A stretch of 18,541 bases of DNA, from NCBI GenBank assembly GCA_023701085.1, contig JAMPXR010000007.1, forward strand, positions 1-18,541, given 5' to 3'. Both the position numbers and the translations under genes were made by a program. Positions 1,600 through 15,498 of this stretch are shown piece after piece (within the stretch, counting starts at the first letter, position 1; each line of letters starts with the position of its first letter). The DNA is from Ramlibacter sp. Its GTDB lineage: Bacteria > Pseudomonadota > Gammaproteobacteria > Burkholderiales > Burkholderiaceae_C. The notes beneath the pieces are model-generated. The model saw only the letters and a program-made list of their open reading frames with translations, was not told the DNA's origin and did no database searches.

Positions 1600-1636
1600 C
1601 GAGCTTGGCGCGCAGGGCCCGCAATGGTCCTGCGGG

Positions 1637-1678
1637 ACCATAGCTCTGCCGTAGCCGGTCCGCCTTGATTCGCGTCAA
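1637..1678 (-). promoter_or_regulatory. FNR/ANR-type operator with -10 element for the host-attachment-like gene
   Basis: TTGATTCGCGTCAA at 1665-1678 matches the FNR operator TTGAT-N4-ATCAA at 9 of 10 fixed positions. Reading towards the minus-strand gene, the hexamer TATGGT (1642 down to 1637) begins after exactly 22 nt, the class II FNR spacing. That predicts a transcript start near 1630, about 31 nt before ATG 1599. Binding is inferred from the sequence. Confidence 0.78.
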
Positions 1679-1714
1679 ATTCTCCGCCGAGCGCGGGCGC
1701 CGCCGTCCTGCCCA

Positions 1715-2551
1715 TCAATGGGCCATCAGGACCGGCAGGGTCATGGACGACAGCACCGTGCGCGTGGTCCCGCCCAGTACCCACTCGCGCGCCCGGCTGT
1801 GGCCATAACAGCCCATCACCAGCAGGTCGGCGTCCAGGTCGAAGGCCCGCGTGAGCAGCAGTTCGCCGACGGCATCGGGCTCGCGGGCCTCCAGGTGCCA
1901 GACCGCCTGGATGCCGCGCAGCTTCAGGTAGCCGTCCAGGTCCAGCCGCGCCCCGTCGATGGACTCGTCCTCCTCCATCCAGGAAATCACGTGGACGCGC
2001 CGCGCGCGCTGCAGCATCGGGACCGCCGCGCCCACGGCCCGGGCGGCCTCCCGCGTCGGTTTCCACGCGATCAGCGCGGTTTCGCCGACCTCGGAAGGCG
2101 CTCCCGCATAGGGCAGGATGAGCGCCGCCTTGCCGCTCGCGGCGATCACGCTCTCCGGGAAGTCCGAAGGCACGCCGACCGACGGATTCGAAGGATCGTG
2201 CTGGCCCAGCACCAACAGGTCGGCATACAGTGCCTGCCGGGAGAAAGCCGGCACGATCGGGTAGTCGCGCACTTCGGCCCAGGTCGCGTGCACGCCGGGA
2301 ACGGCGAGCGAGCGCTCGAGCATGGCGCGCGCCGCCGTGCGTCGCTCGTCGTCGATGTCGCGCAGGTCGGCGGCGACGCTGAGTCCCGCCTCGGCGGCGA
2401 AAGGCACGGCGAGCAGGGCCGGCGTCACGGCGTACAGCGCCGTCACCGCGGCGCCGTGCGACTGCGCGATCGCGCGCGCCACCTCCAGGCGCCGCGCCGC
2501 GCCCGGCGACGCGTCCAGATGGACCAGCAATTGCGTGAGGGATTCCTTCAT
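1715..2551 (-). CDS. Two-domain universal stress protein
   Basis: The 278-residue protein contains two UspA-like halves, about residues 1-148 and 155-278. The first opens with 'LTQLLVHLDASPGAARRL' and keeps 'ADLLVLGQHD' near its end but lacks the glycine loop. The second ends with 'ADLLVMGCYGHSRAREWVLG', the G-2x-G-9x-G ATP-binding motif (Gly247, Gly250, Gly260), followed by 'GTTRTVLSSMTLPVLMAH'. So only the C-terminal half looks competent to bind ATP. The start is ATG 2551 with AGGAG upstream; a longer open frame to 2731 is low-complexity and has no such site. An FNR-type operator at 2609-2622 lies at class II distance, which suggests induction when oxygen is limiting, as for many tandem USPs. 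Its client or signal is unknown. Confidence 0.9.
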   Translation of the reverse strand: MKESLTQLLVHLDASPGAARRLEVARAIAQSHGAAVTALYAVTPALLAVPFAAEAGLSVAADLRDIDDERRTAARAMLERSLAVPGVHATWAEVRDYPIVPAFSRQALYADLLVLGQHDPSNPSVGVPSDFPESVIAASGKAALILPYAGAPSEVGETALIAWKPTREAARAVGAAVPMLQRARRVHVISWMEEDESIDGARLDLDGYLKLRGIQAVWHLEAREPDAVGELLLTRAFDLDADLLVMGCYGHSRAREWVLGGTTRTVLSSMTLPVLMAH

Positions 2552-2580
2552 GATCCGGCTCCTGTCGACACCTGCAGCAC

Positions 2581-2622
2581 ACCTTAGGCCGCCAATGCAC
2601 GCGCCGCCTTGAGCGCCGTCAA
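2581..2622 (-). promoter_or_regulatory. FNR/ANR-type operator with -10 element for the two-domain USP
   Basis: TTGAGCGCCGTCAA at 2609-2622 keeps both TTGA/TCAA cores with six bases between. Towards the minus-strand USP gene the hexamer TAAGGT (2586 down to 2581) begins after 22 nt, predicting a transcript start near 2574 and a leader of about 22 nt. The inner bases (G and G) depart from the consensus T and A, so the site may be weaker than the others. Confidence 0.65.
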
Positions 2623-2640
2623 GCCGCGTTCGCGGCTTGA
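2619..2640. repeat. Perfect 22-bp inverted repeat (possible operator)
   Basis: Ten-base arms, TCAAGCCGCG and CGCGGCTTGA, flank a central TT. The left arm shares its TCAA with the FNR-type operator and the right arm shares its TTGA with the predicted -35 element of the plus-strand promoter. This placement suggests an operator for a second dimeric regulator or a cruciform-forming element between two divergent promoters; a role as terminator is less likely because no T-run follows. Confidence 0.6.
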
Positions 2641-2665
2641 AACCCGGCGCCGGCAGGCCTATAAA
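2637..2665 (+). promoter_or_regulatory. Predicted sigma-70 promoter for the gene at 2762
   Basis: TTGAAA (2637-2642) and TATAAA (2660-2665) are separated by 17 nt, each one or two bases from the sigma-70 consensus. A transcript would begin near 2672 and carry a GC-rich leader of about 90 nt before ATG 2762. This is unusually good for DNA of this base composition. Confidence 0.65.
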
Positions 2666-2686
2666 TCGCAGTCCGCCAGGCCGCTC

Positions 2687-2716
2687 GCGGCGCGGGCGCG
2701 CGCGGCGCGGGCGCGC
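2687..2716. repeat. Two perfect tandem copies of a 15-bp GC-only unit
   Basis: The unit GCGGCGCGGGCGCGC occurs at 2687-2701 and again, identically, at 2702-2716, followed by a partial third copy. It lies in the predicted 5' leader of the gene at 2762. Such a tract is prone to slippage and to stable RNA folding. Confidence 0.8.
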
Positions 2717-2761
2717 GCGGCGGTCGGGCATGGGCTGGCTCTTTCACCAAGGAGACGAATC

Positions 2762-3073
2762 ATGATGGTCGCACGTTGGAGCATCGACGCGAAGTTCGGG
2801 TACAAGCAGAACGTGGTGGACATGATGCAGCGCTGGCTGCGCGACATCGCCCCGAAGGTCGGCATCAAGGCGGAGCAAACGCGGCTGTTGACCGGCTCGG
2901 TCGGGGCGCTGGAAGCCTCGGTCGTGTCCGAGCACGTGATCGAGAACCTGGGTGAGCTGAACAAGGTGTGGGACCAGCTGGCGGCGCTGCCCGAGCACAA
3001 GAAGTGGGGCCAGGAACTGGAGCCTTACGTGGTGTCGGGCACCAGCCGCTGGGAGATCTTCCGCCTGATCTGA
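2762..3073 (+). CDS. Conserved-looking small protein of unknown function
   Basis: I do not recognise this 103-residue protein with certainty. It starts 'MMVARWSIDAKFGYKQNVVD' and contains an amphipathic helix (about 18-35), a strand-rich centre 'TRLLTGSVGALEASVVSEH', a second helix 'NLGELNKVWDQLAALPEHKK' and the ending 'RWEIFRLI'. The alternating strand/helix layout with a 'W..LA..P.H..W' segment resembles small alpha-beta-barrel (ABM/NIPSNAP-like) dimeric proteins, but that is an inference from layout. The start is supported by AAGGAG upstream of ATG 2762. There is no signal peptide or membrane segment. It has its own good promoter (2637-2665), a GC tandem repeat in its leader, and is divergent from a USP gene. 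Confidence 0.75.
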   Translation: MMVARWSIDAKFGYKQNVVDMMQRWLRDIAPKVGIKAEQTRLLTGSVGALEASVVSEHVIENLGELNKVWDQLAALPEHKKWGQELEPYVVSGTSRWEIFRLI

Positions 3074-3082
3074 GCGCGGCGT

Positions 3083-3727
3083 TCAGGGCTCGAGGCTGTC
3101 GGCCAGTCCGTGCCGGATGGCGTAACGGATCAGCTCACTGGCGTTCTGCAGCCCCATCTTCTGCATCAGGTTCGCCTTGTGGGTGCTCACGGTCTTGACC
3201 GAGAGCTTCAGGCGCGAGGCGATCTCGGTGACCGACACCCCGTCCGCGAGCAGCCGGAACACCTCGAATTCGCGGTCCGACAGCATCTCGTGCGGATAGC
3301 TTTCGCTGCCCGGCATCGCGCCCAGCGCGAGCTGCTCGGCCACCTCGGGCGTGATGAACGCGCCGCCGCCGGCGATCTTGCGGATCGCCTGCTCGAGCTG
3401 GGCCGGGGCGCTTTCCTTGGTGAGATAGCCGCTGGCGCCCGACTTGATCGCGCGCACGGCGTATTGCAGTTCCTGGTGCATGCTCAGCACCAGGATGCGC
3501 ACCTTCGGCTTTTCAGAGCGCACCAGCCGGATCAGTTCCATGCCGCTGCGCCCGGGCATCGACAGGTCGAGCACGAGGATGTCGAAATCGAGTTCGCGCA
3601 CCCGCTTCATCACCTCGCTGCCGTCCGCGGCCTCGCCGGCCACGGTCATGTCGCCGGTGTCCGAGATGATGCGCTTGAGTCCCTCGCGAACGATAGCGTG
3701 ATCGTCGGCGATCACGATCCGGATCAT
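3083..3727 (-). CDS. NarL/FixJ-family response regulator
   Basis: The 214-residue protein has a receiver domain (about 1-120) with Asp8-Asp9, the phospho-acceptor Asp54 in 'ILVLDLSMPG', Ser82 and Lys104 in 'GYLTKES', followed by a LuxR-type helix-turn-helix (about 148-210) with 'LSDREFEVFRLLADG' and 'EIASRLKLSVKTVSTHKANL'. It is the DNA-binding partner of the kinase encoded immediately upstream: the kinase stop and this ATG overlap in ATGA (3724-3727), so translation is coupled. Target promoters cannot be read from the window, although the oxygen-limitation genes around it are candidates. The gene ends 9 bp from the stop of the convergent gene at 2762-3073. Confidence 0.95.
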   Translation of the reverse strand: MIRIVIADDHAIVREGLKRIISDTGDMTVAGEAADGSEVMKRVRELDFDILVLDLSMPGRSGMELIRLVRSEKPKVRILVLSMHQELQYAVRAIKSGASGYLTKESAPAQLEQAIRKIAGGGAFITPEVAEQLALGAMPGSESYPHEMLSDREFEVFRLLADGVSVTEIASRLKLSVKTVSTHKANLMQKMGLQNASELIRYAIRHGLADSLEP

Positions 3728-5208
3728 TGGGGCGCCCCGCTCTCCAGCACCGGGATGCGCACCTGGATCCGCGTGCCCTTGCCCGGCCGGCTGTCGATGC
3801 TGACGCTGCCCTTGAGCAGTTGGGCGCGTTCGCGCAACCCCATCAGGCCGAGCGAGTGCGGCTTGCGCGGTGCCGTGGTCGAGAAGCCCTGGCCGTTGTC
3901 ACGCACTTCGAGCACCACGCTCTGGCCGGTGCGGGCGATGACGACGGCCGTTTCGGCGGCGTGGGCGTGCTTGCCCACGTTCGCCAGCGACTCCTGCACG
4001 ATGCGAAAGACCGCCGTGGCATAAGGCTCCTGCAGTTCCAGCTCCTCGTCCACCGAAACCTCGCAGGGCACGCCCGTACGCTGCGTGAAGGTATGGGCGA
4101 GCCACTCGATCGCCGGGGCCAGCCCGAGGTCGTCGAGCATCAGCGGCCGCAGGTCGGCGGCGATGCGGCGCGTCGCCGCCACGGTGGTGTCCAGCATGCT
4201 GACCATATCGGACAGCTTGGCCACCGCCTTTTCCGGCTGGGCAGTCGCGTTGTCGCGCAGCCAGATGGTGTCCATCTTCAGCGCCGTGAGCGATTGCGCC
4301 AGTTCGTCGTGCAACTCGCGCGCGATGCGGCTCTTTTCGCCTTCCCGGATGGCATGGGCCTCGGCCGCGAAGCTGCTCAACTCCTCCTGGGTGCGGATGC
4401 GCTCCGTGATGTCGCGCAGGATCACCGTGAACAGCTTGCCTTCGGGTGTGTTGAGCTGCGAAATCGACGACTCCATCGGGAATTCCTCCCCGTTGGCGCG
4501 CTGCCCGTACAGCACGGTGCCGTCGCCCATGCGGCGCGAAGTGACGCCGGTGCGGTCGAACCGTCGCACGTGCGAGCCGTGGTTGCCCCGATAGCGCTCG
4601 GGGAGCAGCTTTTCCAGCGGCGCGCCCATCGCTTCTTCGCTGGTCCAGCCGAAAATCTTCTCGGCCGCGCGGTTGTACAGCACGATGCTCTGCTGCTCGT
4701 CCACGGTGATGATGGCGTCCATCGCCGAATCCAGCAGCCCCGCCAGCCGGGCGGCCAGCCGGGTGCTGCGCTCCTCGGCCTTCAGGCGCTCGGTGATGTC
4801 CCGCAGGATCACCGTGTACAGCTTGCCCTGGGGCGTCTCGAGCTGCGAAATCGATGCGTCCATGGGGAACTCCTCCCCATTGGCGCGCAAGCCATGGACC
4901 ACCCTCAGTCCCCCCATGCGCCGGGGCGTCACGCCGGTCGTGCCGAAGCGCGCAAGGTGCTGGGAATGGTCGGCCCGAAAGCGGCCCGGAATGAGCCTTT
5001 CCAGGGGTTGCCGCAGCATTTCCTGGCGCGGCCAGCCGAAGATCTTCTCGGCCGCGCGGTTGTAGAGGACGATTTTTTGCTGCTCGTCGACCGTGATGAT
5101 GGCATCCATCGCGGAATCGAGCAGCCCGGCCAGCAGCGCCGCCGCATGTCCGGCGTCATGGCTGAGCGTCGCGTCGTCGTCGAGAATGTGGACGGGAGAA
5201 TCGGGCAC
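3724..5208 (-). CDS. Cytoplasmic tandem-PAS sensor histidine kinase (HisKA_3 type)
   Basis: The 494-residue kinase has no membrane segment. Two PAS domains occupy about residues 26-146 and 155-275 and are a gap-free tandem duplication with a 129-residue period (for example Ala53-Trp59 and Ala182-Trp188, both AEKIFGW). The dimerisation/phospho-acceptor region has 'SRIARELHDELAQSL' with His300, followed by the ATPase N-box 'QESLANVGKHAHA' (405-417), 'VRDNGQGF' (435-442) and 'LGLMGLRERA' (453-462). The PAS domains resemble FixL but carry Arg where the FixL haem histidine is expected, so direct haem-based oxygen sensing is unlikely. The start codon is GTG at 5208; an in-frame TGA lies one codon further up, so there is no longer option. 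It forms an operon with the downstream regulator gene (4-bp overlap). Confidence 0.93.
   Translation of the reverse strand: MPDSPVHILDDDATLSHDAGHAAALLAGLLDSAMDAIITVDEQQKIVLYNRAAEKIFGWPRQEMLRQPLERLIPGRFRADHSQHLARFGTTGVTPRRMGGLRVVHGLRANGEEFPMDASISQLETPQGKLYTVILRDITERLKAEERSTRLAARLAGLLDSAMDAIITVDEQQSIVLYNRAAEKIFGWTSEEAMGAPLEKLLPERYRGNHGSHVRRFDRTGVTSRRMGDGTVLYGQRANGEEFPMESSISQLNTPEGKLFTVILRDITERIRTQEELSSFAAEAHAIREGEKSRIARELHDELAQSLTALKMDTIWLRDNATAQPEKAVAKLSDMVSMLDTTVAATRRIAADLRPLMLDDLGLAPAIEWLAHTFTQRTGVPCEVSVDEELELQEPYATAVFRIVQESLANVGKHAHAAETAVVIARTGQSVVLEVRDNGQGFSTTAPRKPHSLGLMGLRERAQLLKGSVSIDSRPGKGTRIQVRIPVLESGAPQ
4360..5133 (-). repeat. In-gene tandem duplication of a 387-bp PAS-coding unit
   Basis: Codons 26-154 (5133 down to 4747) and 155-283 (4746 down to 4360) of the kinase encode aligned PAS units without any gap. 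The blocks SAMDAIITVDEQQ, IVLYNRAAEKIFGW, RANGEEFPM and TVILRDITER are identical in both. At DNA level the copies are similar but differ at many third positions, so the duplication is not recent. Confidence 0.85.
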
Positions 5209-5309
5209 GCGTCAGTATGACACGCGCACGGATTCCCCCAGCGCCTGCGGGTTAACCTGAAGTAGAAGAACTTCTTAAAAAGACGGTTGACGGTTGATCT
5301 GTCAGCGGC

Positions 5310-5951
5310 TCAATGCGAGCGCGCCAGCAGATCGCGGACCTCCTCGTCGCTGGTCTGGCCGAAATCGCCGTAGTACTGCCCCACACTGCGGAAGTCTGGC
5401 GGGCTCGCCACGCAGACGAATTCGTCCGCCGCCGTTCCAATCAGCTCCTGCGCCTGTGGCGGGGCCACCGGCACGGCGGCCACGATCCAGGCGGGCTTGG
5501 CGCCGCGCAAGGCCTTGAGCGCCACGTTCATCGACGCGCCGGTGGCCACGCCGTCGTCGACCACGATCACCGTGCGGTCCTCGACCGGCACGCTGCCGCG
5601 CTTGCCGCAATACAGCGCATGCCGCCGTATCAGCTCGAGGCTTTCCACGGCGATGATCTCGTCCAGCTGGCGCGCGCTGACGCCATAGGCGGCCACGATC
5701 TGCGGGTCGATGTGCAACGCGCCGCCGCTGGCGATCGCGCCCATGGCCAGCTCCGGCTGGCGCGGCACGCCCAGTTTGCGCACGATCAGCAGGTCCAGTT
5801 GCGCGTCCAGCGCCCGGGCCACCTCGGCGGCAACCGGCACACCGCCACGCGGCAGGGCCAAGACCACGACGTCGCTGCGGCCGGCATACGCCTGCAACCG
5901 GTCAGCCAACGCGCGGCCAGCACTGGCGCGGTCGGTGAATTGAACACTCAT
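5310..5951 (-). CDS. Phosphoribosyltransferase-family protein (PRTase type I)
   Basis: The 213-residue protein has the PRTase fold: 'VVVLALPRGGVPVAAEVA' (about 28-45) as the N-terminal phosphate loop, 'VRKLGVP' (57-63), and the PRPP-binding motif 'VIVVDDGVATGAS' (128-140), whose two Asp bind the ribose hydroxyls. It resembles stand-alone predicted phosphoribosyltransferases found near stress and dormancy genes, not a named purine or pyrimidine salvage enzyme; its base substrate is unknown. The start is ATG 5951 with AGGAG upstream; a longer frame to 5999 would enter the predicted promoter. An FNR-type operator at 6008-6021 and a CRP-like site at 6040-6055 lie upstream, so it is probably induced under oxygen or carbon limitation. 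It is divergent from the DUF883 operon. Confidence 0.88.
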   Translation of the reverse strand: MSVQFTDRASAGRALADRLQAYAGRSDVVVLALPRGGVPVAAEVARALDAQLDLLIVRKLGVPRQPELAMGAIASGGALHIDPQIVAAYGVSARQLDEIIAVESLELIRRHALYCGKRGSVPVEDRTVIVVDDGVATGASMNVALKALRGAKPAWIVAAVPVAPPQAQELIGTAADEFVCVASPPDFRSVGQYYGDFGQTSDEEVRDLLARSH

Positions 5952-5979
5952 GAAAAACACTCCTGCTGCGCAACCATCC

Positions 5980-6021
5980 ACGTTAGGGCAGCGCGCCACA
6001 AGGGGGCTTGACGCACATCAA
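5980..6021 (-). promoter_or_regulatory. FNR/ANR-type operator with -10 element for the phosphoribosyltransferase
   Basis: TTGACGCACATCAA at 6008-6021 is a strong operator match. On the minus strand the hexamer TAACGT (5985 down to 5980) begins 22 nt after it, predicting a start of transcription near 5973 and a leader of about 22 nt before ATG 5951. Confidence 0.78.
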
Positions 6022-6039
6022 GCGCTGTTCCGGGCCCAA

Positions 6040-6055
6040 AGTGATCTGGATCACA
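6040..6055. promoter_or_regulatory. CRP-like palindrome between the divergent promoters
   Basis: AGTGATCTGGATCACA matches the CRP site TGTGA-N6-TCACA at 9 of 10 positions and is also a one-base variant per arm of the FNR operator (GTGAT-N4-ATCAC). Its centre is 33 bp, about three helical turns, upstream of the centre of the FNR-type operator at 6008-6021, a spacing typical of co-activation. Which CRP/FNR-family protein binds is not known. Confidence 0.6.
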
Positions 6056-6166
6056 GGTGAGTGTGGCGGCGATCGGCGTGAAGCGACGACCGTCGCGGCG
6101 CTCGACGCGCAGATCAAACCCCCTCGTCTGGCGCGCATATGCGGGCCGAACGATACCGGGATCGGC

Positions 6167-6208
6167 TTGACGGCGATCAACTTCGCCGTCCAGGCGCGTG
6201 ACTAGACT
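6167..6208 (+). promoter_or_regulatory. FNR/ANR-type operator with -10 element for the DUF883 operon
   Basis: TTGACGGCGATCAA at 6167-6180 is followed after 22 nt by TAGACT (6203-6208). This predicts a transcript start near 6215, 17 nt before ATG 6232, again the class II FNR geometry. Confidence 0.78.
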
Positions 6209-6231
6209 GGAATCAGCACAGGAGCGAAACC

Positions 6232-6552
6232 ATGAACGATGCTACGCAGGCCCCCGCCGACGGCCAGAGGCGCCTGGCCGAGGATTTCAAGGCTGTGGTC
6301 GCCGATGCCGAAGAACTGCTGCGGCATGCCGCGCGCGATGCCGGCGCGGGTTACAACGAAGCGCGAGCGCGCCTGGAAGCCAGCCTCAAGACCGCACGCG
6401 CTGAACTCGAAGTGCTCGAGAAAAGCGTGCGCGACGGCACGCGCCGGGCGGCGCGCGCGACCGACGGGTACGTGCACGAACATCCGTGGGAATCGGTCGG
6501 CATCGCGGCCGGCGTGGGCCTGCTGCTGGGCCTGCTCATCTCGCGCCGCTAG
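6232..6552 (+). CDS. DUF883 (ElaB/YqjD/YgaM-like) membrane-anchored protein
   Basis: The 106-residue protein has a long, charged, Ala-rich helix (about 12-78) and a C-terminal membrane anchor, 'HPWESVGIAAGVGLLLGLLI' (84-103), ending in Arg-Arg. The 'HPW.SVGIAAGVGLLLGLL' signature is typical of DUF883. In Escherichia coli the relatives ElaB, YqjD and YgaM are tail-anchored inner-membrane proteins that associate with ribosomes in stationary phase. The start is ATG 6232 with AGGAG about 8 nt upstream. It is the first gene of a three-gene operon matching the E. coli yqjD-yqjE-yqjK order, and it sits behind an FNR-type promoter, so low-oxygen induction is inferred. Confidence 0.9.
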   Translation: MNDATQAPADGQRRLAEDFKAVVADAEELLRHAARDAGAGYNEARARLEASLKTARAELEVLEKSVRDGTRRAARATDGYVHEHPWESVGIAAGVGLLLGLLISRR

Positions 6553-6918
6553 ATGAGCCTCGGCGAAAGCCTGGGCAGGCTGGGCGCCAGCTCGCTGCTG
6601 GTGGCCCGGCAGCGGCTGGAACTGGCATCCCTGGACGTCGAGGAGGAACTGCTGCGCCTGGGCGGACTGCTCGCCGGCGCGCTGGTGACGGCCCTCATGC
6701 TCGCCCTCGCCCTGGCCGGCGCGGCGGCCACGGTCGTGATCTATTTCTGGGAGGAAGCGAGGCTCGCCGCCAGCCTGGGCGTCACCGCGTTCTTCTGCGC
6801 CGCGGCGGCCCTCATGGCCTGGCGCCTGGCGCGCGCGCTGCGCGACAAGCCGCGGTTCCTGGCGGGCACGCTCGCCGAACTGGACAAGGACCGCCAGCAA
6901 TGGCGTGACGAGGCTTGA
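6553..6918 (+). CDS. YqjE-like / 'phage holin family' membrane protein
   Basis: The 121-residue product starts at the ATG directly following the TAG of the previous gene (no intergenic base), so translation is probably coupled. An N-terminal amphipathic helix (about 1-35, with 'RQRLELASLDVEEEL') precedes two membrane segments at about 38-63 and 73-92, then a charged tail ('LAELDKDRQQWRDEA'). This matches the YqjE group, often labelled 'phage holin family' (Actinobacteriophage_holin_6/PF07332-type) although no phage context exists here. The function is unknown; in enterobacteria it is encoded with yqjD and yqjK. The product is an inner-membrane protein. Confidence 0.85.
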   Translation: MSLGESLGRLGASSLLVARQRLELASLDVEEELLRLGGLLAGALVTALMLALALAGAAATVVIYFWEEARLAASLGVTAFFCAAAALMAWRLARALRDKPRFLAGTLAELDKDRQQWRDEA

Positions 6919-7199
6919 GGACGCGCCTGCAAGCGATCGCGCGGCGCCGCGCCGAACTGGCCGGCGAGATCGGCCGGCAGCGCGCTGCCTTGGGCGAGTC
7001 GCTGGCCGAGGTGCGGCAGGCCGTCGCGTTCGCCGGCGCGGGCCTCGTGATCGGCCGCGTGCTGACGCGCCGCCCCTGGCTGCGCGCCCTGGCGCTGGGC
7101 GCCCTGGCCGTCGTCGCGGCCCGGCGCCTCGCGGTGCGGCCGGCTATTGCTGGGGACAGCCGTCCGGACGCTCGCCCGGCGCGCGCGGGCAATCCCTGA
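6915..7199 (+). CDS. YqjK-like small protein
   Basis: The 94-residue product begins at TTG 6915, overlapping the TGA of the YqjE-like gene by 4 bp; no ATG is available early in this frame. It has an Arg/Ala/Glu-rich N-terminal helix ('ARRRAELAGEIGRQRAALGE'), one weak hydrophobic stretch at about 37-50, a second at about 57-70, and an Arg/Pro-rich tail. Position as third gene after DUF883 and YqjE-like genes, and the Arg-rich helix, fit the YqjK family. The function is unknown. Its last 56 bp overlap the 3' end of the convergent membrane-protein gene on the other strand. The exact start is uncertain because it is a TTG. Confidence 0.72.
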   Translation: MRTRLQAIARRRAELAGEIGRQRAALGESLAEVRQAVAFAGAGLVIGRVLTRRPWLRALALGALAVVAARRLAVRPAIAGDSRPDARPARAGNP

Positions 7200-7425
7200 T
7201 CTGCGCCGGCGGCGTGCCCAGCACCGCCGTCAACGCGTTCGACACGGCGCTGATGGCCCAGAACACGAAAAAGCTCACCGTGTACACGCCCTGCCGGGAC
7301 AAGGCCAGCGGCTGGCCGAGCCATTGAAGGTCCTGCGGGTCCACCATCGCGAAGACAAACAATTCGAGCACGCAGGCCGAGAGGAACGCCGGCCACGCGA
7401 CCCACACGAGTTTCAGGTTCCCCAT
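7144..7425 (-). CDS. Small two-helix membrane protein at the end of the cbb3 locus
   Basis: I cannot assign a named family. The 93-residue product has two clear membrane helices, about residues 6-28 and 47-69, separated by a short loop ('DPQDLQWLGQPLALSRQG'), and a soluble tail with Cys79 and Cys90. The start ATG 7425 has AAGGAG 9 nt upstream, so the frame is very likely translated. The gene follows the FixH-like gene by 30 bp on the same strand and is probably the last member of the cbb3 cluster, which suggests an accessory role in oxidase assembly or membrane function. That role is an inference from position only. Its 3' end overlaps the convergent YqjK-like gene by 56 bp. Confidence 0.75.
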   Translation of the reverse strand: MGNLKLVWVAWPAFLSACVLELFVFAMVDPQDLQWLGQPLALSRQGVYTVSFFVFWAISAVSNALTAVLGTPPAQIRDCPRAPGERPDGCPQQ

Positions 7426-7455
7426 GCCTTGGCTCCTTGAATCAACCGGTTCACA

Positions 7456-7725: not shown

Positions 7726-7733
7726 GCTTGCTC

Positions 7734-9170
7734 CTATCTCGGCACCAGGAAGGCCGACTTCTCGCTGACTTGGGCTTCGCCCGACACTGCGCCGATGTTG
7801 AAGCGGATGGGATGGGACCCCGGCGCGGCCGCCCCGTAGGGCAATTGCAGCCGCACGGCGACCCAACGCGATTCCGCGGGACCTACGGCAACCTCCGCGT
7901 CCGAGGCCAGCGCCAGCCCCTGCAGTCCTTCGGCGGAAATCCGGTAATTCTGCGGCTGCTCCGTGGCGTTCATGATCTGCAGCCGGTAAACGTTCTCGAG
8001 CTTGCCGCCGGCGACGATGCGCGAGAGCGCGGCGCGATCGCGCACGACGTCCACCTTCAGCGGCGTGCGGACCACCAGGCTGGCCAGCAGCGCGGCGCAC
8101 AAGGCCACCAGCACGCCGCCGTAGACCAGCACCCGCGGGCGCAGCACGTGGCCCCAGATCTGCGAACGCGTCCAGCCCCCGGCCATGGCGTTCTGGGTGG
8201 TGAACCGGATCAGCCCGCGCGGGTAGTTCATCCGGTCCATCACGTCGTCGCACACGTCCACGCAGGCCGCGCATCCTATGCATTCGTACTGCAGGCCCTC
8301 GCGGATGTCGATGCCGGTCGGGCAGACCTGCACGCACAGCGTGCAGTCCACGCAGGAGCCCAGCGACAGCGCCACGGGATCGGCCTTGCGCGAGCGCGAA
8401 CCGCGCGGCTCGCCGCGCCCGGCGTCGTAGCTGACGATCAGCGTGTCCGGGTCGAACATGGCGCTCTGGAAGCGCGCGTACGGGCACATGTACTTGCACA
8501 CCTGCTCGCGCAGGAAGCCGGCGTTGCCGTAGGTCGCCAGGCCGTAGAAATTGACCCAGAACCACTCCCACGGGCCGAACGACAGGGTGAACGCCTGCGC
8601 CCACAGCGTCTGGATCGGCGTGAAGTAGCCGACGAAGGTGAAACCGGTCCACACCGACAGCGCCAGCCACAGGAAGTGCTTGGTCCCCTTTCTCAGCAGC
8701 TTGGCGGGCGACATCGGCGCGGCGTCCAGGCGCATGCGCGCGGTGCGGTCGCCCTCGACCTTGCGCTCTATCCACAGGAAGATTTCGGTGTAGACGGTCT
8801 GCGGGCAGGAAAAGCCGCACCACAGCCGCCCCGCCACCGCCGTGAACAGGAACAGCGACAGCGCGCTGATCACCAGCAGCGCGGTCAGGTAGATGAAGTC
8901 CTGCGGGTACAGGACATAACCCAGCAGGTAAAAGCGGCGCGCGCCCAGGTCGAACAGGACCGCCTGGCGCTCGCCCCATTGCAGCCAGGGCAGGCCGTAG
9001 AACACGAGCTGGGTGAGGAACACGAAACCCCAGCGCCAACGCGCGAACAGGCCGCGCACCGCCCGCGGGTAGATCTTCTTCTGGGCCTCGTAGAGGGAGT
9101 CGCCCTCCTGCTGCGCCGCCGCGGCGATGGGAATCACCTTGCGGGCGGCATTCGACTGCGGATCGGACAC
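7734..9170 (-). CDS. ccoG: CcoG (RdxA/FixG-like) cytochrome c oxidase accessory iron-sulfur protein
   Basis: The product is a membrane protein of 478 residues from GTG 9170. It has several membrane segments in its first two thirds, 'GRLWCGFSCPQTVYTE', 'CKYMCPYARFQ', and two 4Fe-4S binding motifs, CVDCTLCVQVCP and CIGCAACVDVCD, then a last membrane helix and a C-terminal immunoglobulin-like periplasmic domain ending in 'SAFLVPR'. CcoG is thought to reduce Cu(II) to Cu(I) for loading of the cbb3 copper centre. The GTG start lies just beyond the ccoP stop (9172-9174) and gives the usual length; an in-frame ATG at 9215 would overlap ccoP and has no ribosome site. It belongs to the cco operon. Confidence 0.94.
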   Translation of the reverse strand: MSDPQSNAARKVIPIAAAAQQEGDSLYEAQKKIYPRAVRGLFARWRWGFVFLTQLVFYGLPWLQWGERQAVLFDLGARRFYLLGYVLYPQDFIYLTALLVISALSLFLFTAVAGRLWCGFSCPQTVYTEIFLWIERKVEGDRTARMRLDAAPMSPAKLLRKGTKHFLWLALSVWTGFTFVGYFTPIQTLWAQAFTLSFGPWEWFWVNFYGLATYGNAGFLREQVCKYMCPYARFQSAMFDPDTLIVSYDAGRGEPRGSRSRKADPVALSLGSCVDCTLCVQVCPTGIDIREGLQYECIGCAACVDVCDDVMDRMNYPRGLIRFTTQNAMAGGWTRSQIWGHVLRPRVLVYGGVLVALCAALLASLVVRTPLKVDVVRDRAALSRIVAGGKLENVYRLQIMNATEQPQNYRISAEGLQGLALASDAEVAVGPAESRWVAVRLQLPYGAAAPGSHPIRFNIGAVSGEAQVSEKSAFLVPR

Positions 9171-9171
9171 T

Positions 9172-10089
9172 TCAGGGCTTGCCGGGCGCGGCCTTGTTGG
9201 AAAGACCCCAGACATAGGCGGACAGCACGTGGATCTGCGGTTCCGTCAATTTGCCAACCTGCGCCGGCATCTCGTTGGTCTTGCCGTTGTTGATCATCGC
9301 GATGACGGCCTGCTCGCCCCAGCCGTGCAGCCAGATGTCGTCGCTCAGGTTGGGCGCGCCGACCGCGGGGTTGCCCTTGCCGTCGTTGCCATGGCAGGCC
9401 GCACAGGCGGCGAACTTGGCCTTGCCCAGCTGGGCGCGCACCGAATCGTGCGGGTTCCTGGACAGGCTGAGCACGTAGTGGGCGACGTTCCTGACGTCGT
9501 CGGGCGTCCCAACCGCCGCGGCCATGGGAGGCATCAGGCCGCGGCGCCCCTGCGCGATCGTTTCGACGATCTTCTCGGGCGAGCCGCCATGCAGCCAGTC
9601 CGCGTCCGCCAGGCTGGGAAAGCCCTTGCTGCCGCGCGCGTCCGAGCCGTGGCACTGGGCGCAGTTGTTCATGAACAGCCGCTCGCCGATCGCCATCGCG
9701 TTGCCGTCGCCCGCCAGCTCCTCGACCTTCCTGGAGGCGAATTGCGCGTACAGCGGCGCCAGTTCCTTGTTGGCGCTCGCGACTTCCGACTCGTATTCGC
9801 CGCGCGTGGTCCACTTCAATTCGCCCGGATAGCTGCCCAGGCCGGGATAGGCCACCAGGTAAAGCAGGCCGAAGACGATGGTCAGCACGAACAGCCACAT
9901 CCACCAGCGCGGCATCGGGTTGTTCATCTCGCGCAGGTCGTCGTCCCAGACATGCCCGGTCGTGTTGTCGGCCTGCGAGACCACCTTCTTGCGCGCGGTG
10001 ATCCACAACAGCAGCAGGCAGGCCAGGATGCCGGCGACCGTGAAGCCGGCCACATAGACCGACCAGAAGTTCGCAGTGAAATCGCTCAT
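9172..10089 (-). CDS. ccoP: cbb3-type cytochrome c oxidase subunit III (dihaem)
   Basis: The 305-residue protein has two N-terminal membrane segments (about 9-31 and 62-82), with the conserved 'DDLREMNNPMPRWWMWLF' stretch between them, and two cytochrome c domains. Haem-binding sites are CAQCH (143-147) and CAACH (229-233); likely distal ligands are the methionines in 'GLMPPM' (186 or 189) and 'NEMP' (274). It passes electrons from soluble cytochrome c through CcoO to the CcoN catalytic site. The gene begins 12 bp after the ccoQ stop and ends 1 bp before the GTG of ccoG. The size matches the family (about 290-320 residues). Confidence 0.97.
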   Translation of the reverse strand: MSDFTANFWSVYVAGFTVAGILACLLLLWITARKKVVSQADNTTGHVWDDDLREMNNPMPRWWMWLFVLTIVFGLLYLVAYPGLGSYPGELKWTTRGEYESEVASANKELAPLYAQFASRKVEELAGDGNAMAIGERLFMNNCAQCHGSDARGSKGFPSLADADWLHGGSPEKIVETIAQGRRGLMPPMAAAVGTPDDVRNVAHYVLSLSRNPHDSVRAQLGKAKFAACAACHGNDGKGNPAVGAPNLSDDIWLHGWGEQAVIAMINNGKTNEMPAQVGKLTEPQIHVLSAYVWGLSNKAAPGKP

Positions 10090-10101
10090 GGCAGGCTCGC
10101 G

Positions 10102-10245
10102 TCAGTCGTGTTCGAAGGGAATGCGGGCCGCTTCGTCGAAGCGGTCCCGGTTGCGGCGCGCATAGGCCCACCAGGCGATGCCCAGGAACGTGCCCAGCGA
10201 GGCGAGCGTGGCGATGATGCGCAGCGTGGTGATGTCCATGTCCAT
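10102..10245 (-). CDS. ccoQ: cbb3-type oxidase subunit IV, CcoQ
   Basis: This 47-residue frame lies between ccoO and ccoP. It reads 'MDMDITTLRIIATLASLGTF', then 'LGIAWWAYARRNRDRFDEAA' and the tail 'RIPFEHD'. A single membrane helix (about 8-28) followed by a short charged tail with 'FDEAARIPF' is the CcoQ pattern. CcoQ stabilises the CcoP-CcoNO association. Start could be ATG 10245 or the in-frame ATG 10239; neither has a strong ribosome site. It would be missed by gene finders with a 60-residue cutoff. Confidence 0.93.
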   Translation of the reverse strand: MDMDITTLRIIATLASLGTFLGIAWWAYARRNRDRFDEAARIPFEHD

Positions 10246-10286
10246 TGCGTTGTCCGTTCAGTGCCGCGGGCGCTTGCGGGGTGGGT

Positions 10287-10922
10287 TCATTTCAACGCCC
10301 GGCCCATGGATTGCAGGTAGGCGACGAGCGCGTCCATGTCGGTCTTGTCCTTCACATCGGCGGCCGCCTTGGCGATCTCCGCGTCGGTGTAGGGCACGCC
10401 CACCGTGCGCAAGGCCTTCATCCGCGCCGCCATGCCGCCGGCGTCCACGGCGCTCTTTTCCAGCCACGGGTAGGCCGGCATGTTGGATTCGGGCACGACG
10501 TCGCGCGGGTTGTTCAGGTGGATGCGATGCCATTCGTCGCTGTACCTGCCGCCCACGCGGTGCAGGTCCGGACCGGTGCGCTTGCTGCCCCACTGGAAGG
10601 GGTGGTCGTAGACGAATTCGCCGGCCACCGAATAGTGGCCGTAGCGCAGCGTCTCGGCGCGGAACGGCCGGATCATTTGCGAGTGGCAGTTGTAGCAGCC
10701 TTCGCGCAGGTAGACGTCGCGGCCGGCCAGCTGCAGCGCCGTGTAGGGCTTGACGCCCTCGATCGGCTGCGTGGTCGTCTTCTGGAAGAACAGCGGCACG
10801 ATCTCGATCAGGCCGCCGACGGCGATCACGAGCAGGATCAGCACGATCATCAGGAAGTTGCTGGTCTCGACGCGCTCATGCGAGAAGGCGGCGGGCGTGT
10901 TGTGGTTGTCGCTCATCTGCAT
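10287..10922 (-). CDS. ccoO: cbb3-type cytochrome c oxidase subunit II (monohaem)
   Basis: The 211-residue protein has an N-terminal membrane anchor (about 22-45, ending '[11 protein letters not shown]') and one haem c site CYNCH (76-80) in the conserved context '[18 protein letters not shown]', with Met148 in '[10 protein letters not shown]' as the probable distal ligand. '[20 protein letters not shown]' is also typical of CcoO. It links CcoP to the catalytic subunit. The start is ATG 10922 with GGAG 6 nt upstream; ATG 10916 is a nearby alternative. The ccoN stop lies 7 bp before it. Length is at the family norm. Confidence 0.97.
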
Positions 10923-10929
10923 CGCTCCA

Positions 10930-12366
10930 TCAGGCGCCCTGCGCCACGGCGGCGACCGGCACGCGCACCGACCGTCCCCGCGCGACCGTCATCCAGGTGT
11001 TCCAGGCCATGATCACCATGCCGGCCAGGTAGAGCAGGCCGCCCAGCACGCGGATCATGTAGAAAGGATAGGTCGCCTTGACCGATTCCACGAAGGTGTA
11101 GGTCAGCGTGCCGTCGGCGTTGATGCCGCGCCACATCAGGCCCTGCATCACGCCGGCGATCCACATCGCCGCGATATAGAGCACGATGCCGATGGTGGCG
11201 ACCCAGAAATGCAGCTCGATGGCCGGCACCGAGTGCATGGTCTTGCGTCCGAACAGGCGGGGAATCAGGTAGTACAGCGACCCCATCGAGATCAGGCCGA
11301 CCCAGCCGAGCGCGCCCGAGTGCACGTGGCCGACGGTCCAGTCGGTGTAATGGGACAGCGCGTTGACGGTCTTGATCGACATCATCGGTCCCTCGAAGGT
11401 GCTCATGCCGTAGAACGACAGCGACACGATCAGGAACCTGAGCACGGGATCGTCGCGCAGCTTGTGCCAGGCCCCCGACAGGGTCATCACGCCGTTGATC
11501 ATGCCGCCCCAGCTGGGCGCCAGCAGGATGAGGGAGAACACCATGCCGACCGACTGGGTCCAGTCGGGCAAGGCCGTGTAATGCAGGTGGTGCGGGCCGG
11601 CCCACATGTAGGTGAAGATCAGGGCCCAGAAGTGCACGATCGACAGCCGGTAGCTGTACACCGGGCGCTCGGCCTGCTTGGGGATGAAGTAATACATCAT
11701 CCCCAGGAAACCGGCGGTGAGGAAGAAGCCCACCGCGTTGTGGCCGTACCACCATTGCACCATCGCGTCCTGCACGCCCGCGTAGGCCGAGTACGACTTC
11801 ATCCAGCCGGCCGGCACCTCCGCGCTGTTGACCAGGTGCAGCAGGGCCACCGCCAGGATGAAGGAGCCGTAGAACCAGTTGGCCACGTAGATGTGGCGCA
11901 CCTTGCGGATGCCGATGGTGCCGAAGAACACGATGGCGTAGGCCACCCACACCAGCGTGATCAGGATGTCGATTGGCCACTCGAGCTCGGCGTACTCCTT
12001 GCCGGTGGTGTACCCCAGGGGCAGGCTGATGGCCGCCGCGACGATCACGGCCTGCCAGCCCCAGAAGGTGAACGACGCGAGCGCGCCGCCGAACAGGCGC
12101 GCATGGCAGGTGCGCTGCACCACGTAATAGCTGGTGCCGATCAGCGCGCAGCCGCCGAAGGCGAAGATCACCGCGTTGGTGTGCAAGGGGCGCAGGCGCC
12201 CGTAGCTAAGCCACGGGATGCCGAAATTGAGCTCGGGCCAGGCGAGCTGCGCGGCGATGAAGACGCCCACCAGCATGCCGACCACGCCCCAGACCACGGC
12301 CATGAGGGAAAACTGGCGCACGACCGTGTCGTTGTAGAGCGCCGTCTGCGCCGAAGAATCGTTCAT
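10930..12366 (-). CDS. ccoN: cbb3-type cytochrome c oxidase catalytic subunit I
   Basis: The 478-residue protein is a 12-helix haem-copper oxidase subunit that reduces oxygen with high affinity and pumps protons. Visible ligands include His62 ('PLHTNAV', low-spin haem), His209 ('WWYGHNAV') and the pair His259-His260 ('AGPHHLHYT') for the copper site, and '[10 protein letters not shown]' (His347 and His349) for the haems. The family-specific Glu325 in 'STFEGPMMS' is present. ATG 12366 is the expected start; the frame remains open to 12573, but that extension overlaps ccoS and is low-complexity. An FNR-type operator at 12421-12434 lies about 60 bp upstream, consistent with microaerobic induction, the usual control of cbb3 genes. 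Confidence 0.98.
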
Positions 12367-12420
12367 TGGGAGACCTTGTTGCCAAACCTTGTCAGTTTCC
12401 GCGCGGGATCGGGCATGCAA

Positions 12421-12434
12421 TTGACGAATGTCAA
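12421..12434 (-). promoter_or_regulatory. FNR/ANR-type operator upstream of ccoN, overlapping the ccoS stop codon
   Basis: TTGACGAATGTCAA (12421-12434) has perfectly symmetrical arms TTGAC/GTCAA. Its centre is 61 nt upstream of ATG 12366. The ccoS stop codon (12431-12433) lies inside it, so an internal promoter for ccoNOQPG appears to be embedded in the ccoI-ccoS-ccoN unit. Unlike the other five sites, no TAnnnT hexamer occurs 22 nt downstream (the bases there read AAACTG). Confidence 0.75.
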
Positions 12435-12568
12435 TCCGACCGGAGAATGCGCTCGGCCTCCGCGTCGACGCCTTCGAACTGGCCGCGCCAGACGGCCCAG
12501 CCCAAGGCGCCAATGATGAGCAGCGCCAGCACCACGGAGAGCGGGATGAGGATGAAGAGGATGTCCAT
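12431..12568 (-). CDS. ccoS: CcoS, cbb3 oxidase maturation protein
   Basis: This 45-residue frame begins '[20 protein letters not shown]' and continues '[20 protein letters not shown]' to the end 'ILRSD'. One membrane helix followed by 'W.V..GQF.DLE.PA.RIL'-type sequence is the hallmark of CcoS/FixS, needed to insert haem b and copper into CcoN. It lies 30 bp after the ccoI stop, the usual neighbour. No clear ribosome-binding site precedes ATG 12568. Its stop codon is part of the FNR-type operator for ccoN. The short length means it could easily be overlooked. Confidence 0.93.
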
Positions 12569-12598
12569 GTCAAACGTTCGATGTGCGGGCGCCCGTCG

Positions 12599-14929
12599 TC
12601 AGGCGCCGTGGGTCACGGCCGGCGTCCGGGCAAGCGGCGGGCGGCCTTCGGCGGTTGGCAGGGCGTCCACGCGCGCCAGGCGCGCCGCGTTGGCCACGAC
12701 CCCCAGCGAGCTGGCGGCCATGCCCAGTCCCGCGAGCCAGGGCGGCATGGCGCCCATGACCGCCAGCGGAACCGACACCGCGTTGTACACCGCGGCCCAG
12801 GCGAGATTCTGCCGCACGATGGCGCGGGTGCGGCGCGCCTGCCGGACCAGCAAGGCGACGGACGCGAGCTGGCCGCCGGGAATGGCGAAGTCGGACCTGG
12901 ACTGCGCCAGCGGCACGGCCTGCCCCATGGCGATCGAAACATCGGCGCGCGCGAGCACCGGGCCGTCGTTCATGCCGTCGCCCACCATCAGCAGGCGATG
13001 TCCCTCCTGCTGCGCCCGCCGCACGTGGTCCAGCTTGTCTTCCGGCGAGCAGCCGCCCAACGCGGGGCCGATGCCCGCGCGGCGCGCCAGCCGCAGCACG
13101 TTCGCGGCATGGTCGCCGGAGAGCAGCTGCACGCCCAGGCCCATGGCGCGCAGCGCGCCCATCGCCGCGGGCGCATCGCCGCGCATCGCCTCGTCGAGCT
13201 CGAAACTGGCCAGCCAGCCTGCCTCGTCGGCCAGGTGCGTCTGGAGCCTGTCCGCGCTCGCCGGGCCGGCCGGGGCGCCGCAAAAAGATGCCGATCCCAG
13301 CCGCAATTCGCGCGCGCGGCCGTCTTCCCCGGCGACCACTCCGCGAACGCCGCGCCCGGGCGCTTCGCTCACCTGGGTCGCGGCCGGTCCGCCCGCAGGC
13401 GCGGCGGCGGCAAGGGCGCGCGCGGCGGGATGCAAGGAATGCCGTGCCAGCGCCGCGGCCTGCGCCAGCGCCTGCGCGCCATCGGCGCCGGCGCGGACCC
13501 GCGCCGCCACCAGCGACATGCGGTCCTGCGTCAGCGTGCCGGTCTTGTCGAACACGACCGTGTCGACGCCGGCGCAGGCTTCCAGCGCCTGCAGCCGCCG
13601 CACCAGCACGCCGCGCCGCGCCAGGGCGCCGGCCGAGGCCAGCGTGGCGGCCGGCGTGGCCAGCGAGAGCGCGCACGGGCACGTGACGATCAACACCGCC
13701 ACCGCCACGCCCAGCGCATGCGCCGGGCCGCTTTCCCACCACCACGCCGCCGCCGCCGCGGCCGCGAGCACGACGCCGACCAGGAAGGGGCTGGCGATCC
13801 GGTCGGCGATCTGCGCGAGCCGCGGCTTGTCCAGCGACGCCTGCTCCATCAGGGCGACGATCCCGGCGTAGCGCGTCTGGCTGCCGGTGCGCTGCACCCG
13901 CACCAGCAGCGCGCCCGTCAGGTTGTGGCTTCCCGCCACCACGGGTTCGCCCTGGCGCCGCGGCAGCGGACTGCACTCGCCCGTGAGCAGGGCCTCGTCC
14001 ACCTGGGTCTGCCCCTCGACGATGCGGCCATCGGCCGGAAACACCTCTGCGGGCAGCACGCGGATCAGGTCGCCCGCCGCCAAACGCCGCACCGGCACCC
14101 GCTCGAACACGCCATCTTCGCGCTGCCGCTCTATGGTTTGCGGCAGCCGCCGCATCAGCGCTTCCAGCGACCCCGCCGTGCGGTCACGCAGGCGCTGCTC
14201 CAGCAGGCGTCCCGAGAGCAGGAAAAACACGAACATCGTGACCGAATCGAACCAGACGTCGCCGCCCAGCGGGCCGGCCGGATCGAAGGTGGCCGCGGTG
14301 CTGGCGCCGAACGCGATGGCGATGCCCAGGGCGACCGGCACGTCCATCCCGATCCGCCCGTTGCGCAGGTCGCGCGCCGCCGCCGAGAAGAAAGGAACGC
14401 AGGAAAACAGCAGCACCGGCAGCGTGAGCACCCAGGAGGCCCAGCGCAGCAGCGCCTGGATGTCGGGCGTGATCTCGCCCGGCGCGGCCGTGTAGGCCGG
14501 ATAGGCGTACATCATCACCTGCATCATGCAAAAGCCCGCGACCAGCCAGCGCCACAGCAGCAGCCGCTGCGCCTGCCGCCGCGGCTCGGCGGCCAGCAGG
14601 TCACCCGCCGGGACCGCGCCGTACCCTGCGCGCTGCAGGGCGGACAGCCAGTCGGACGGGCGGCTGCCCTCGGGCGACCAGACCAGGCAAGCCGTGGCAC
14701 TGGCACCGTTGACGCGCACGCTGTCGACGCCGGGCAGCCGCGACAGCGCCGCCTCCACCGTGAGCGCACAGGCGGCGCAGTGCATGCCCTCGATGGCGAG
14801 GAACGACTCCCAGCGGCCCGCGCGGCCCGCGACGGGCCGGCTGAAGCCCTCCCATTCCGCCGGCTCGTCCAGCACGCAGCCGCCCCGCGCGGCCGCGCCG
14901 TCGTCCGGGGTTGGGACAGTCATCTGCAT
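12599..14929 (-). CDS. ccoI: CcoI-type copper-transporting P1B ATPase
   Basis: The 776-residue protein exports Cu(I) for assembly of the cbb3 copper centre. In order: a short N-terminal segment, a heavy-metal-associated domain with '[15 protein letters not shown]' (Cys51, Cys54), about eight membrane helices, the actuator 'LLTGEC' (TGE at 316-318), the membrane metal site CPC (417-419), the phosphorylation site Asp461 in 'DKTGTLTQ', 'HSLHP' (497-501), and 'GDGMND' (650-655). The usual CcoI N-terminal extension with an extra Cys-rich metal-binding segment is reduced to about 38 residues with one Cys (Cys18). Position before ccoS and ccoN supports CcoI rather than a general CopA. The start could be ATG 14929 or ATG 14923; neither has a clear ribosome site. 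Confidence 0.95.
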
Positions 14930-14963
14930 GTTGGGAGGCTATCGGCCGCCCGGGGCGCCCCAA

Positions 14964-15005
14964 TTGACATGGATCAAGCGGCCAGGGGAAGCGCCGACCT
15001 AAGCT
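14964..15005 (+). promoter_or_regulatory. FNR/ANR-type operator with -10 element for the USP pair
   Basis: TTGACATGGATCAA at 14964-14977 is followed after 22 nt by TAAGCT (15000-15005), predicting a transcript start near 15012 and a leader of about 19 nt before ATG 15031. The operator is also 35 bp upstream of the divergent ccoI start, so it might influence both directions. Confidence 0.78.
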
Positions 15006-15474: not shown

Positions 15475-15498
15475 CGGGTTTGACGAAAGGACAGACCG

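What the first reader, a model, noticed from the sequence alone, without database searches (positions are those of the whole stretch)
1637..15005. Six FNR-type operators in 13 kb, five with identical class II spacing, define an oxygen-limitation island
Seen: TTGA-N6-TCAA sites at 1665, 2609, 6008, 6167, 12421 and 14964, all intergenic or at a gene end, each upstream of a different unit. In five cases a hexamer of form TAnnnT (TATGGT, TAAGGT, TAACGT, TAGACT, TAAGCT) starts exactly 22 nt later in the direction of the gene. Known: E. coli FNR class II promoters have the site centred at -41.5, giving this 22-nt gap. Inference: one FNR/ANR-family regulator drives the host-attachment-like gene, USPs, phosphoribosyltransferase, DUF883 operon and cbb3 genes as a local regulon, in loose analogy to dormancy regulons such as DosR.
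Basis: partly seen in the sequence, partly recalled or inferred. Interest (0 to 1): 0.75.

Follow-up and report, generated by a model that had tools for sequence, protein, structure and literature searches.

The report
Two-way oxygen switch with leaderless mRNA
Six binding sites for a low-oxygen regulator in this bacterium are real and conserved, and one of them appears to start two genes in opposite directions, one of which is predicted to make an mRNA that begins directly at its start codon.

Summary
All six TTGAN6TCAA boxes are there (0.05 expected); genome density predicts 0.22. Five have TAnnnT exactly 22 nt on; the ccoN box has GAAACT at 21, so all six look like class II FNR promoters. 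Boxes stand before orthologous genes in five same-genus and two Polaromonas genomes, though not every box keeps a -10 (20 of 33). Two complete FNR homologues are encoded. It is an FNR island, comparable to the Burkholderia lxa locus.

New: the 14964 box is two-sided. Towards usp2 it gives a normal leader. Towards ccoI it is centred -41.5 from the A of the ATG, predicting a leaderless mRNA. Of 70 ccoI genes read in the family, 55 have an exact box plus -10; all 55 have a start codon 6-9 nt after it, 1 of 55 with a Shine-Dalgarno-like motif, and 45 share the box with a divergent usp (42 of 45 with such a motif). Fifteen of 70 lack this. None of 28 ccoI-like genes outside the family has it. No expression data were available.

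The parts
1665..1678 (-). FNR box of the host-attachment-like gene
   Evidence: box unchanged in C251 copy
1637..1642 (-). -10 element TATGGT, gap 22
1201..1599 (-). Host_attach / baeRF family 12 protein gene (start codon uncertain, no clear Shine-Dalgarno)
2609..2622 (-). FNR box of tandem-USP gene
   Evidence: box before the orthologue in 7 of 7 island relatives
2581..2586 (-). -10 element TAAGGT, gap 22
1715..2551 (-). tandem universal stress protein
6008..6021 (-). FNR box of phosphoribosyltransferase - PAS kinase - response regulator genes (operon inferred from same strand and order)
5980..5985 (-). -10 element TAACGT, gap 22
5310..5951 (-). phosphoribosyltransferase
3724..5208 (-). two-PAS HisKA_3 histidine kinase, nearest solved relative FixL
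3083..3727 (-). LuxR/NarL-type response regulator
6167..6180 (+). FNR box of DUF883 genes
6203..6208 (+). -10 element TAGACT, gap 22
6232..6918 (+). DUF883 protein and holin-superfamily membrane protein
12421..12434 (-). FNR box of ccoN, overlapping the ccoS stop codon (TGA at 12431-12433)
12394..12399 (-). non-consensus -10 GAAACT, gap 21 (GACACT/GAAACT/AACACT at 22 in relatives)
7734..12366 (-). ccoN, ccoO, ccoP, ccoG (cbb3 oxidase genes; ccoN 10930-12366)
12431..12568 (-). ccoS-like small protein
   Evidence: named by eye
14964..14977 (.). two-sided FNR box shared by usp2 (+) and ccoI (-)
15000..15005 (+). -10 TAAGCT, gap 22, towards usp2
14936..14941 (-). -10 TAGCCT, gap 22, towards ccoI; 6 nt before the ccoI ATG
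12599..14929 (-). ccoI copper P-type ATPase; the A of the ATG at 14929 is the predicted +1 (leaderless)
15031..15921 (+). two universal stress proteins (usp2 with AGGAG leader, usp3)
15968..17872 (+). NarX/NarQ-like histidine kinase (PilJ, HAMP, GAF, HisKA_3) following the usp genes

Best explanation
This is an FNR (ANR)-controlled low-oxygen island. When oxygen falls, a [4Fe-4S] FNR dimer binds each palindrome at about -41.5 and recruits sigma-70 RNA polymerase as a class II activator. The targets are the cbb3 oxidase genes, universal stress proteins, a phosphoribosyltransferase-sensor kinase-regulator operon, DUF883 genes and a host-attachment-like gene. At 14964 one dimer serves two promoters placed symmetrically around it. 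The usp2 side gives an mRNA with a leader of about 19 nt and an AGGAG site. The ccoI side starts transcription on the A of the ATG, so the copper-ATPase mRNA should be leaderless. Shown here: sites, spacing, conservation, gene identities, presence of FNR proteins. Inferred: binding, oxygen control, transcription starts, leaderless translation.
For: Six exact boxes, local enrichment and fixed 22-nt spacing. In the C251 copy four of four boxes and -10s are unchanged, while spacer 6022-6166 matches at 107 of 168 aligned columns. Seven island relatives: box before usp1 in 7 of 7, before phosphoribosyltransferase in 5 of 7, before the host-attachment-like gene in 4 of the 4 where it was detected, before ccoN in 5 of the 5 that reach it; two-sided usp2/ccoI box in 5 of the 5 that reach it. 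FNR proteins: best solved relatives of one are FNR; both pass the Fnr cut-off, 233 and 236 bits against 228. Leaderless ccoI: of 70 ccoI genes 55 have exact box + TAnnnT; the start codon lies 6 nt (36), 7 nt (12), 8 nt (5) or 9 nt (2) after it, 53 ATG and 2 GTG, and in 41 of 55 an in-frame stop between box and start excludes a longer protein. A Shine-Dalgarno-like motif precedes 1 of 55 ccoI starts against 42 of 45 divergent usp starts. The box-gap-TAnnnT-ATG pattern is in 223 of 399 family genomes; with GAT for ATG in 68 of 399; reversed in 7 of 399 (counted by eye).
Against: No RNA, binding or mutant data. The genome is an 81% complete assembly in 543 contigs. In the seven relatives 13 of 33 boxes have no TAnnnT at gap 21-22 on either side; 6 of the 13 are the ccoN boxes. 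Fifteen of the 70 ccoI genes lack an exact box with a -10: 4 have a one-mismatch box with a -10, 11 have neither. The 70 were the best-scoring of 117 genomes with a match, not a random draw. USP1 further afield has box plus -10 in only 10 of 20 loci read (my count). The ccoN -10 departs from TAnnnT. Which FNR acts is unknown.
Confidence: 0.82

Rival explanations
1. The FNR island is real, but ccoI is translated from a downstream codon or from a short leader because transcription starts a few bases upstream; the ATG position is incidental.
For: The start of transcription is only predicted; the window has a second in-frame ATG 6 nt on.
Against: ATG sits 6-9 nt after the -10 in 53 of 55 cases, and each offset beyond 9 nt holds at most 3 of 55. 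Other start codons show no common position in the listing (by eye). In 41 of 55 an in-frame stop lies between box start and start codon.
Confidence: 0.12
2. The boxes are bound by another CRP/FNR member (DNR- or FixK-like, responding to NO or other signals) rather than an oxygen-labile FNR.
For: Half-sites TTGA/TCAA are shared across the superfamily (recalled). One search finds three Crp-type domains, one of them in a short frame at a contig edge.
Against: Both complete proteins carry CX2CX5C plus a further Cys and pass the Fnr cut-off while scoring far below the FixK and FnrL cut-offs. cbb3 and usp genes are Fnr-activated in Herbaspirillum.
Confidence: 0.12
3. The boxes are a chance or compositional clustering.
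For: TTGA-N6-TCAA is short, and 47 occur in the genome.
Against: Enrichment, fixed spacing and orthologous conservation. Fifteen 15-20 kb loci around other phosphoribosyltransferase genes in the same genus hold 5 boxes in about 293 kb.
Confidence: 0.02

Closest known systems
E. coli class II FNR promoters
   Same: Palindrome centred at -41.5; 19 of 23 activated promoters with known start lie at -41.5 +/- 4 (PMC3688515, passages).
   Different: Here one box has a -10 on both sides and one side is predicted leaderless; that E. coli FNR mRNAs usually have leaders is recalled, not looked up.
Herbaspirillum seropedicae Fnr1/Fnr3 regulon
   Same: fixNOP (cbb3) and uspA genes are Fnr-activated; the fnr1 box is centred at -42 (PMC5934665, passages).
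   Different: No shared usp/ccoI operator or leaderless mRNA is mentioned in the passages seen; the word 'divergent' does not occur in its main text.
lxa locus of Burkholderia cenocepacia
   Same: A cluster switched on at low oxygen with six USPs (PMC9733578, PMC9104464, passages).
   Different: About 50 genes. The micro-oxia study found no classical cbb3 oxidase in sequenced Burkholderia (PMC3759415, passages). Overlap of the other genes was not tested here.
Bidirectional promoters of E. coli
   Same: One short DNA element starts divergent mRNAs, and polymerases can compete (PMC12825309, passages).
   Different: There a shared -10 element is read both ways. Here the -10s are separate and the shared part is the activator site.
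DosR dormancy regulon
   Same: Low-oxygen unit with USPs (recalled).
   Different: The shared operator is an FNR box, not a response-regulator box; the kinase next to the response regulator has PAS domains, although the NarX-like kinase at the right edge has a GAF domain.

Membership tests
FNR class II promoter | TTGA-N6-TCAA box | tested here: met
   6 of 6 exact
FNR class II promoter | -10 element placed for a centre near -41.5 | tested here: met
   TAnnnT at gap 22 in five; at ccoN only the non-consensus GAAACT at gap 21
FNR class II promoter | genome encodes an FNR with cluster cysteines | tested here: met
   two complete homologues
FNR class II promoter | activation at low oxygen dependent on fnr | not testable with these tools
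   no expression data
leaderless mRNA gene (ccoI) | transcription starts at the start codon | not testable with these tools
   predicted only: box centred -41.5 from the A of the ATG
leaderless mRNA gene (ccoI) | -10 directly before the start codon, no Shine-Dalgarno site | tested here: met
   window: 6 nt, no such motif before the ATG; family: 55 of 55 box-plus-hexamer genes with start 6-9 nt after the -10, 1 of 55 with SD-like motif
bidirectional promoter with shared -10 | one -10 read in both directions | tested here: not met
   two separate -10s either side of the box
lxa locus | cluster of low-oxygen genes with several USPs | tested here: inconclusive
   three USP genes and FNR boxes; low-oxygen expression not testable
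lxa locus | orthologous gene set in Burkholderia | not tested
   lxa genes were not fetched
DosR regulon | control by a GAF haem kinase and DosR box | tested here: inconclusive
   kinase beside the response regulator has PAS domains; the NarX-like kinase has a GAF domain but scores best as NarQ/NarX, below cut-off; DosR box not searched

The most novel reading that the evidence does not exclude
A single FNR dimer acts as a two-way switch between usp and ccoI. It can hold only one class II polymerase at a time, so each firing makes either a leadered stress-protein mRNA or a leaderless copper-ATPase mRNA. Leaderless initiation then adds a translational layer that favours oxidase assembly when ordinary initiation is limited. 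This unit is widespread in one bacterial family and would be, to my knowledge, the first oxygen-responsive operator that assigns different translation modes to its two transcripts.
Probability: 0.3. Interest if true: 0.75.

Novelty: new variant of a known kind. Interest (0 to 1): 0.56.

Why it matters
FNR promoters are a textbook case. A conserved arrangement in which one palindrome drives two genes, with the start codon of one pinned at the predicted +1, would be a new layout. It makes two open questions testable at one natural site: how a class II activator shares polymerase between divergent promoters, and why leaderless mRNAs are kept in proteobacteria. It also predicts the transcription start of ccoI in many genomes of the family.

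Tried and rejected
Chance clustering: rejected. The view that the ccoN site lacks a -10: replaced by a GACACT-type -10 seen in relatives. A shared second motif for the embedded response regulator: not searched; no claim made. Extension of the island to the left: the first 9 kb of C251 hold no box. Extension beyond the NarX-like kinase: the 12-kb stretches L143 and L144 have no box beyond those of ccoN and usp2/ccoI. Leaderless ccoI outside the family: one search matched 65 of 185 genomes of the class, 63 of them outside the family; 28 of those 63 loci were read and none has an exact box plus TAnnnT within 350 nt upstream of the aligned start; at 40-46% identity some may not be true ccoI. USP1 further afield: one search matched 64 of 299 genomes; 20 loci fetched, of which 10 have box plus -10 within about 110 nt upstream (my count). 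Plasmid search for the phosphoribosyltransferase: 129 records, all under 60% identity; not followed. Six of the 37 other own-genome boxes were not examined for -10s. Literature: searches returned no paper. Searches returned 8, 6, 9 and 279 papers (12 of the 279 listed); of these I read passages of four (PMC3688515, PMC5934665, PMC12825309, PMC4176332) and saw the rest as listings only. None seen describes a leaderless or shared-operator ccoI. The library holds open-licence papers only and supplementary tables could not be read, so absence from print is not shown.
Full report
WHAT WAS CLAIMED. Six FNR-type boxes in 13 kb, five with a TAnnnT hexamer exactly 22 nt on, forming an oxygen-limitation island.

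SETTING. The window lies at the start of contig C140 of a 3.10-Mb assembly in 543 contigs, 81% complete. The best named relative of its phosphoribosyltransferase is from Ramlibacter sp. BP03 (82% identity). A same-genus genome, G044, holds a contig of the same length, 6613 bases, with the match at the same place, so I take the genus as Ramlibacter. Genes by Pfam and NCBIfam and by reading: OsmC-like and RicR/FrmR-like (left edge); host-attachment-like; tandem USP; response regulator and two-PAS kinase; phosphoribosyltransferase; DUF883 and holin-type proteins; ccoG, ccoP, ccoO, ccoN, ccoS, ccoI; two USPs; a NarX/NarQ-like kinase.

OBSERVATION. Six exact boxes (0.05 expected; 8 with one mismatch allowed against 1.68 expected). 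The genome has 47 (15 for the reversed pattern). Four of them are in contig C251, which matches window 1-6229 at 94%. Leaving these and the window's six out, the window should hold 0.22 boxes (Poisson P 1.4e-7). TAnnnT is at gap 22 for five boxes, and gap 22 is the only gap from 10 to 40 with more than one hit. Elsewhere in the genome 5 of 31 examined boxes have a hexamer at gap 20-23 on either side; six more were not examined.

THE SIXTH SITE. The ccoN box has GAAACT at gap 21. In the relatives read the same place has GAAACT (L094), AACACT (L096) or GACACT (L097, L057, L064, L167) at gap 22, by eye, whose minus-strand rows are printed one base off. The box overlaps the ccoS stop codon in the window and in 5 of the 6 relatives read. 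I take it as a class II site with a poor -10.

CONSERVATION. Seven relatives have the island: L093-L097 of the same genus and L057, L064 of Polaromonas. There is an exact box before usp1 in 7 of 7; before phosphoribosyltransferase in 5 of 7; before the host-attachment-like gene in 4 of the 4 where it was detected; before ccoN in 5 of the 5 that reach it. The inner six bases differ. Of the 33 boxes in these loci 20 have TAnnnT at gap 21 or 22 on at least one side; of the 13 that do not, 6 are ccoN boxes and 7 lie elsewhere. In L094 one box serves both phosphoribosyltransferase and DUF883, where the window has two. As a contrast, 15 loci of 15-20 kb around other phosphoribosyltransferase genes in the same genus hold 5 boxes in all (L098-L112). 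Within the assembly, the C251 copy keeps four of four boxes and -10s, while 107 of 168 aligned columns agree in the spacer 6022-6166.

REGULATOR. Three Crp-type domains were found, one of them in a 59-residue frame at a contig edge. Two are complete FNR homologues with CX2CX5C and a further Cys. They score 233 and 236 bits against NCBIfam's Fnr cut-off of 228, and the best solved relatives of the first are FNR structures. That one stands beside hemN with a box between them (box at L021:3196, no hexamer either side). That the helix residues ETVSR read TTGA is recalled, not tested.

THE NEW PART. The 14964 box has TAAGCT at gap 22 towards usp2 and TAGCCT at gap 22 towards ccoI. On the ccoI side six bases follow and then the ATG, so the box centre is -41.5 from the A (41 bases). 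For the other six genes the distance from box centre to start codon is 58-72 bases (ccoN 61, its value being for a wrong codon). The same two-sided layout is in L143, L144, L145, L057 and L064, with 6, 6, 7, 6 and 6 nt between -10 and ATG.

TEST ACROSS THE FAMILY. CcoI homologues were found in 117 of 140 genomes. I read upstream DNA of the 70 best-scoring, one gene from each of 70 genomes, the window's own included. Of 70, 55 have an exact box with TAnnnT at gap 20-23 (59 with one mismatch allowed). In all 55 an in-frame start codon follows the hexamer: ATG after 6 nt in 35, 7 in 11, 8 in 5, 9 in 2, and GTG after 6 or 7 nt in one each. In 41 of 55 an in-frame stop lies between box start and start codon. 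A Shine-Dalgarno-like motif precedes 1 of 55. Opposite the ccoI side, 46 of 55 have a second hexamer. A usp2 homologue is divergent in 49 of 55: 45 with a hexamer and 4 without; none was detected in 6. Its start is 21-54 nt after the hexamer in 41 of 45, with a Shine-Dalgarno-like motif in 42 of 45; the other four offsets (-16, 71, 83, 92) are probably mis-extrapolated. Eleven of the 70 have no box-plus-hexamer even with one mismatch. Outside the family 0 of 28 ccoI-like loci show it.

GENOME-WIDE. Box-gap-TAnnnT-5..7-ATG occurs in 223 of 399 family genomes. With GAT for ATG it occurs in 68 of 399, of which at least 15 listed matches are GATG and so overlap the ATG pattern. The reversed pattern occurs in 7 of 399 (counted by eye). 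Of 30 loci fetched, 7 are ccoI and 6 are homologues of the window's NarX-like kinase; the other 17 matched no window gene, several being short frames. So a part of the 223 is chance.

MECHANISM. Inferred: low oxygen gives active FNR, which acts as class II activator at each box. At 14964 polymerase can be recruited either way. In E. coli a CRP site placed at -60.5 or -40.5 raised acrA and blocked the divergent acrR, and for -60.5 the block was traced to polymerase competition (PMC12825309, passages). If the same holds here, usp2 and ccoI transcripts compete. Leaderless transcripts exist in this order: in B. cenocepacia 72 genes start exactly at the annotated start and 42 within 10 nt, 24 of these 114 being tRNAs (PMC4603805, passages). 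Why ccoI would be leaderless is unknown. Possibilities are low but steady output of the copper ATPase, or continued translation when initiation factors are limiting.

COMPARISON. Class II FNR control and Fnr activation of cbb3 and usp genes are already known, as is a low-oxygen cluster with USPs in Burkholderia. The shared operator and leaderless ccoI were not met in searches, seen as listings and a few passages; that is not proof of novelty.

VERDICT. Observation confirmed; interpretation right in its core and incomplete. A new variant of a known kind.

Noticed in passing
L019 (contig C251) 8672-14905 versus window 1-6229: A second copy of the left third of the window, 94% identical, in the same assembly: either two co-assembled strains or a duplication.
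   Followed up: partly
window 3724-5208 (-): The two-PAS kinase is nearest to FixL among solved structures. A His in PAS-B (residue 210) aligns with the FixL His that I recall as haem ligand, and one is at the matching place in PAS-A (residue 81), by eye. It may be a second oxygen sensor under FNR control.
   Followed up: partly
L188, L198, L199, L209, L210, L212: Homologues of the window's NarX-like kinase have their own FNR box with a predicted leaderless start in other genera.
   Followed up: no
window 12421-12434: The ccoN FNR box overlaps the ccoS stop codon, also in 5 of 6 relatives read.
   Followed up: yes
L094 10396: One box serves both phosphoribosyltransferase and DUF883 genes where the window has two boxes 159 bp apart.
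   Followed up: no
L020 4064: The same 14-mer as the ccoN box stands 82 nt before a small frame with a CXXCH motif elsewhere in the genome.
   Followed up: no
window 1599-1642: The host-attachment-like gene has no clear Shine-Dalgarno site, and its -10 lies at the start of a longer open frame, so its start is uncertain.
   Followed up: no
L021 3196: The box between fnr and hemN has no TAnnnT at gap 20-23 on either side.
   Followed up: no
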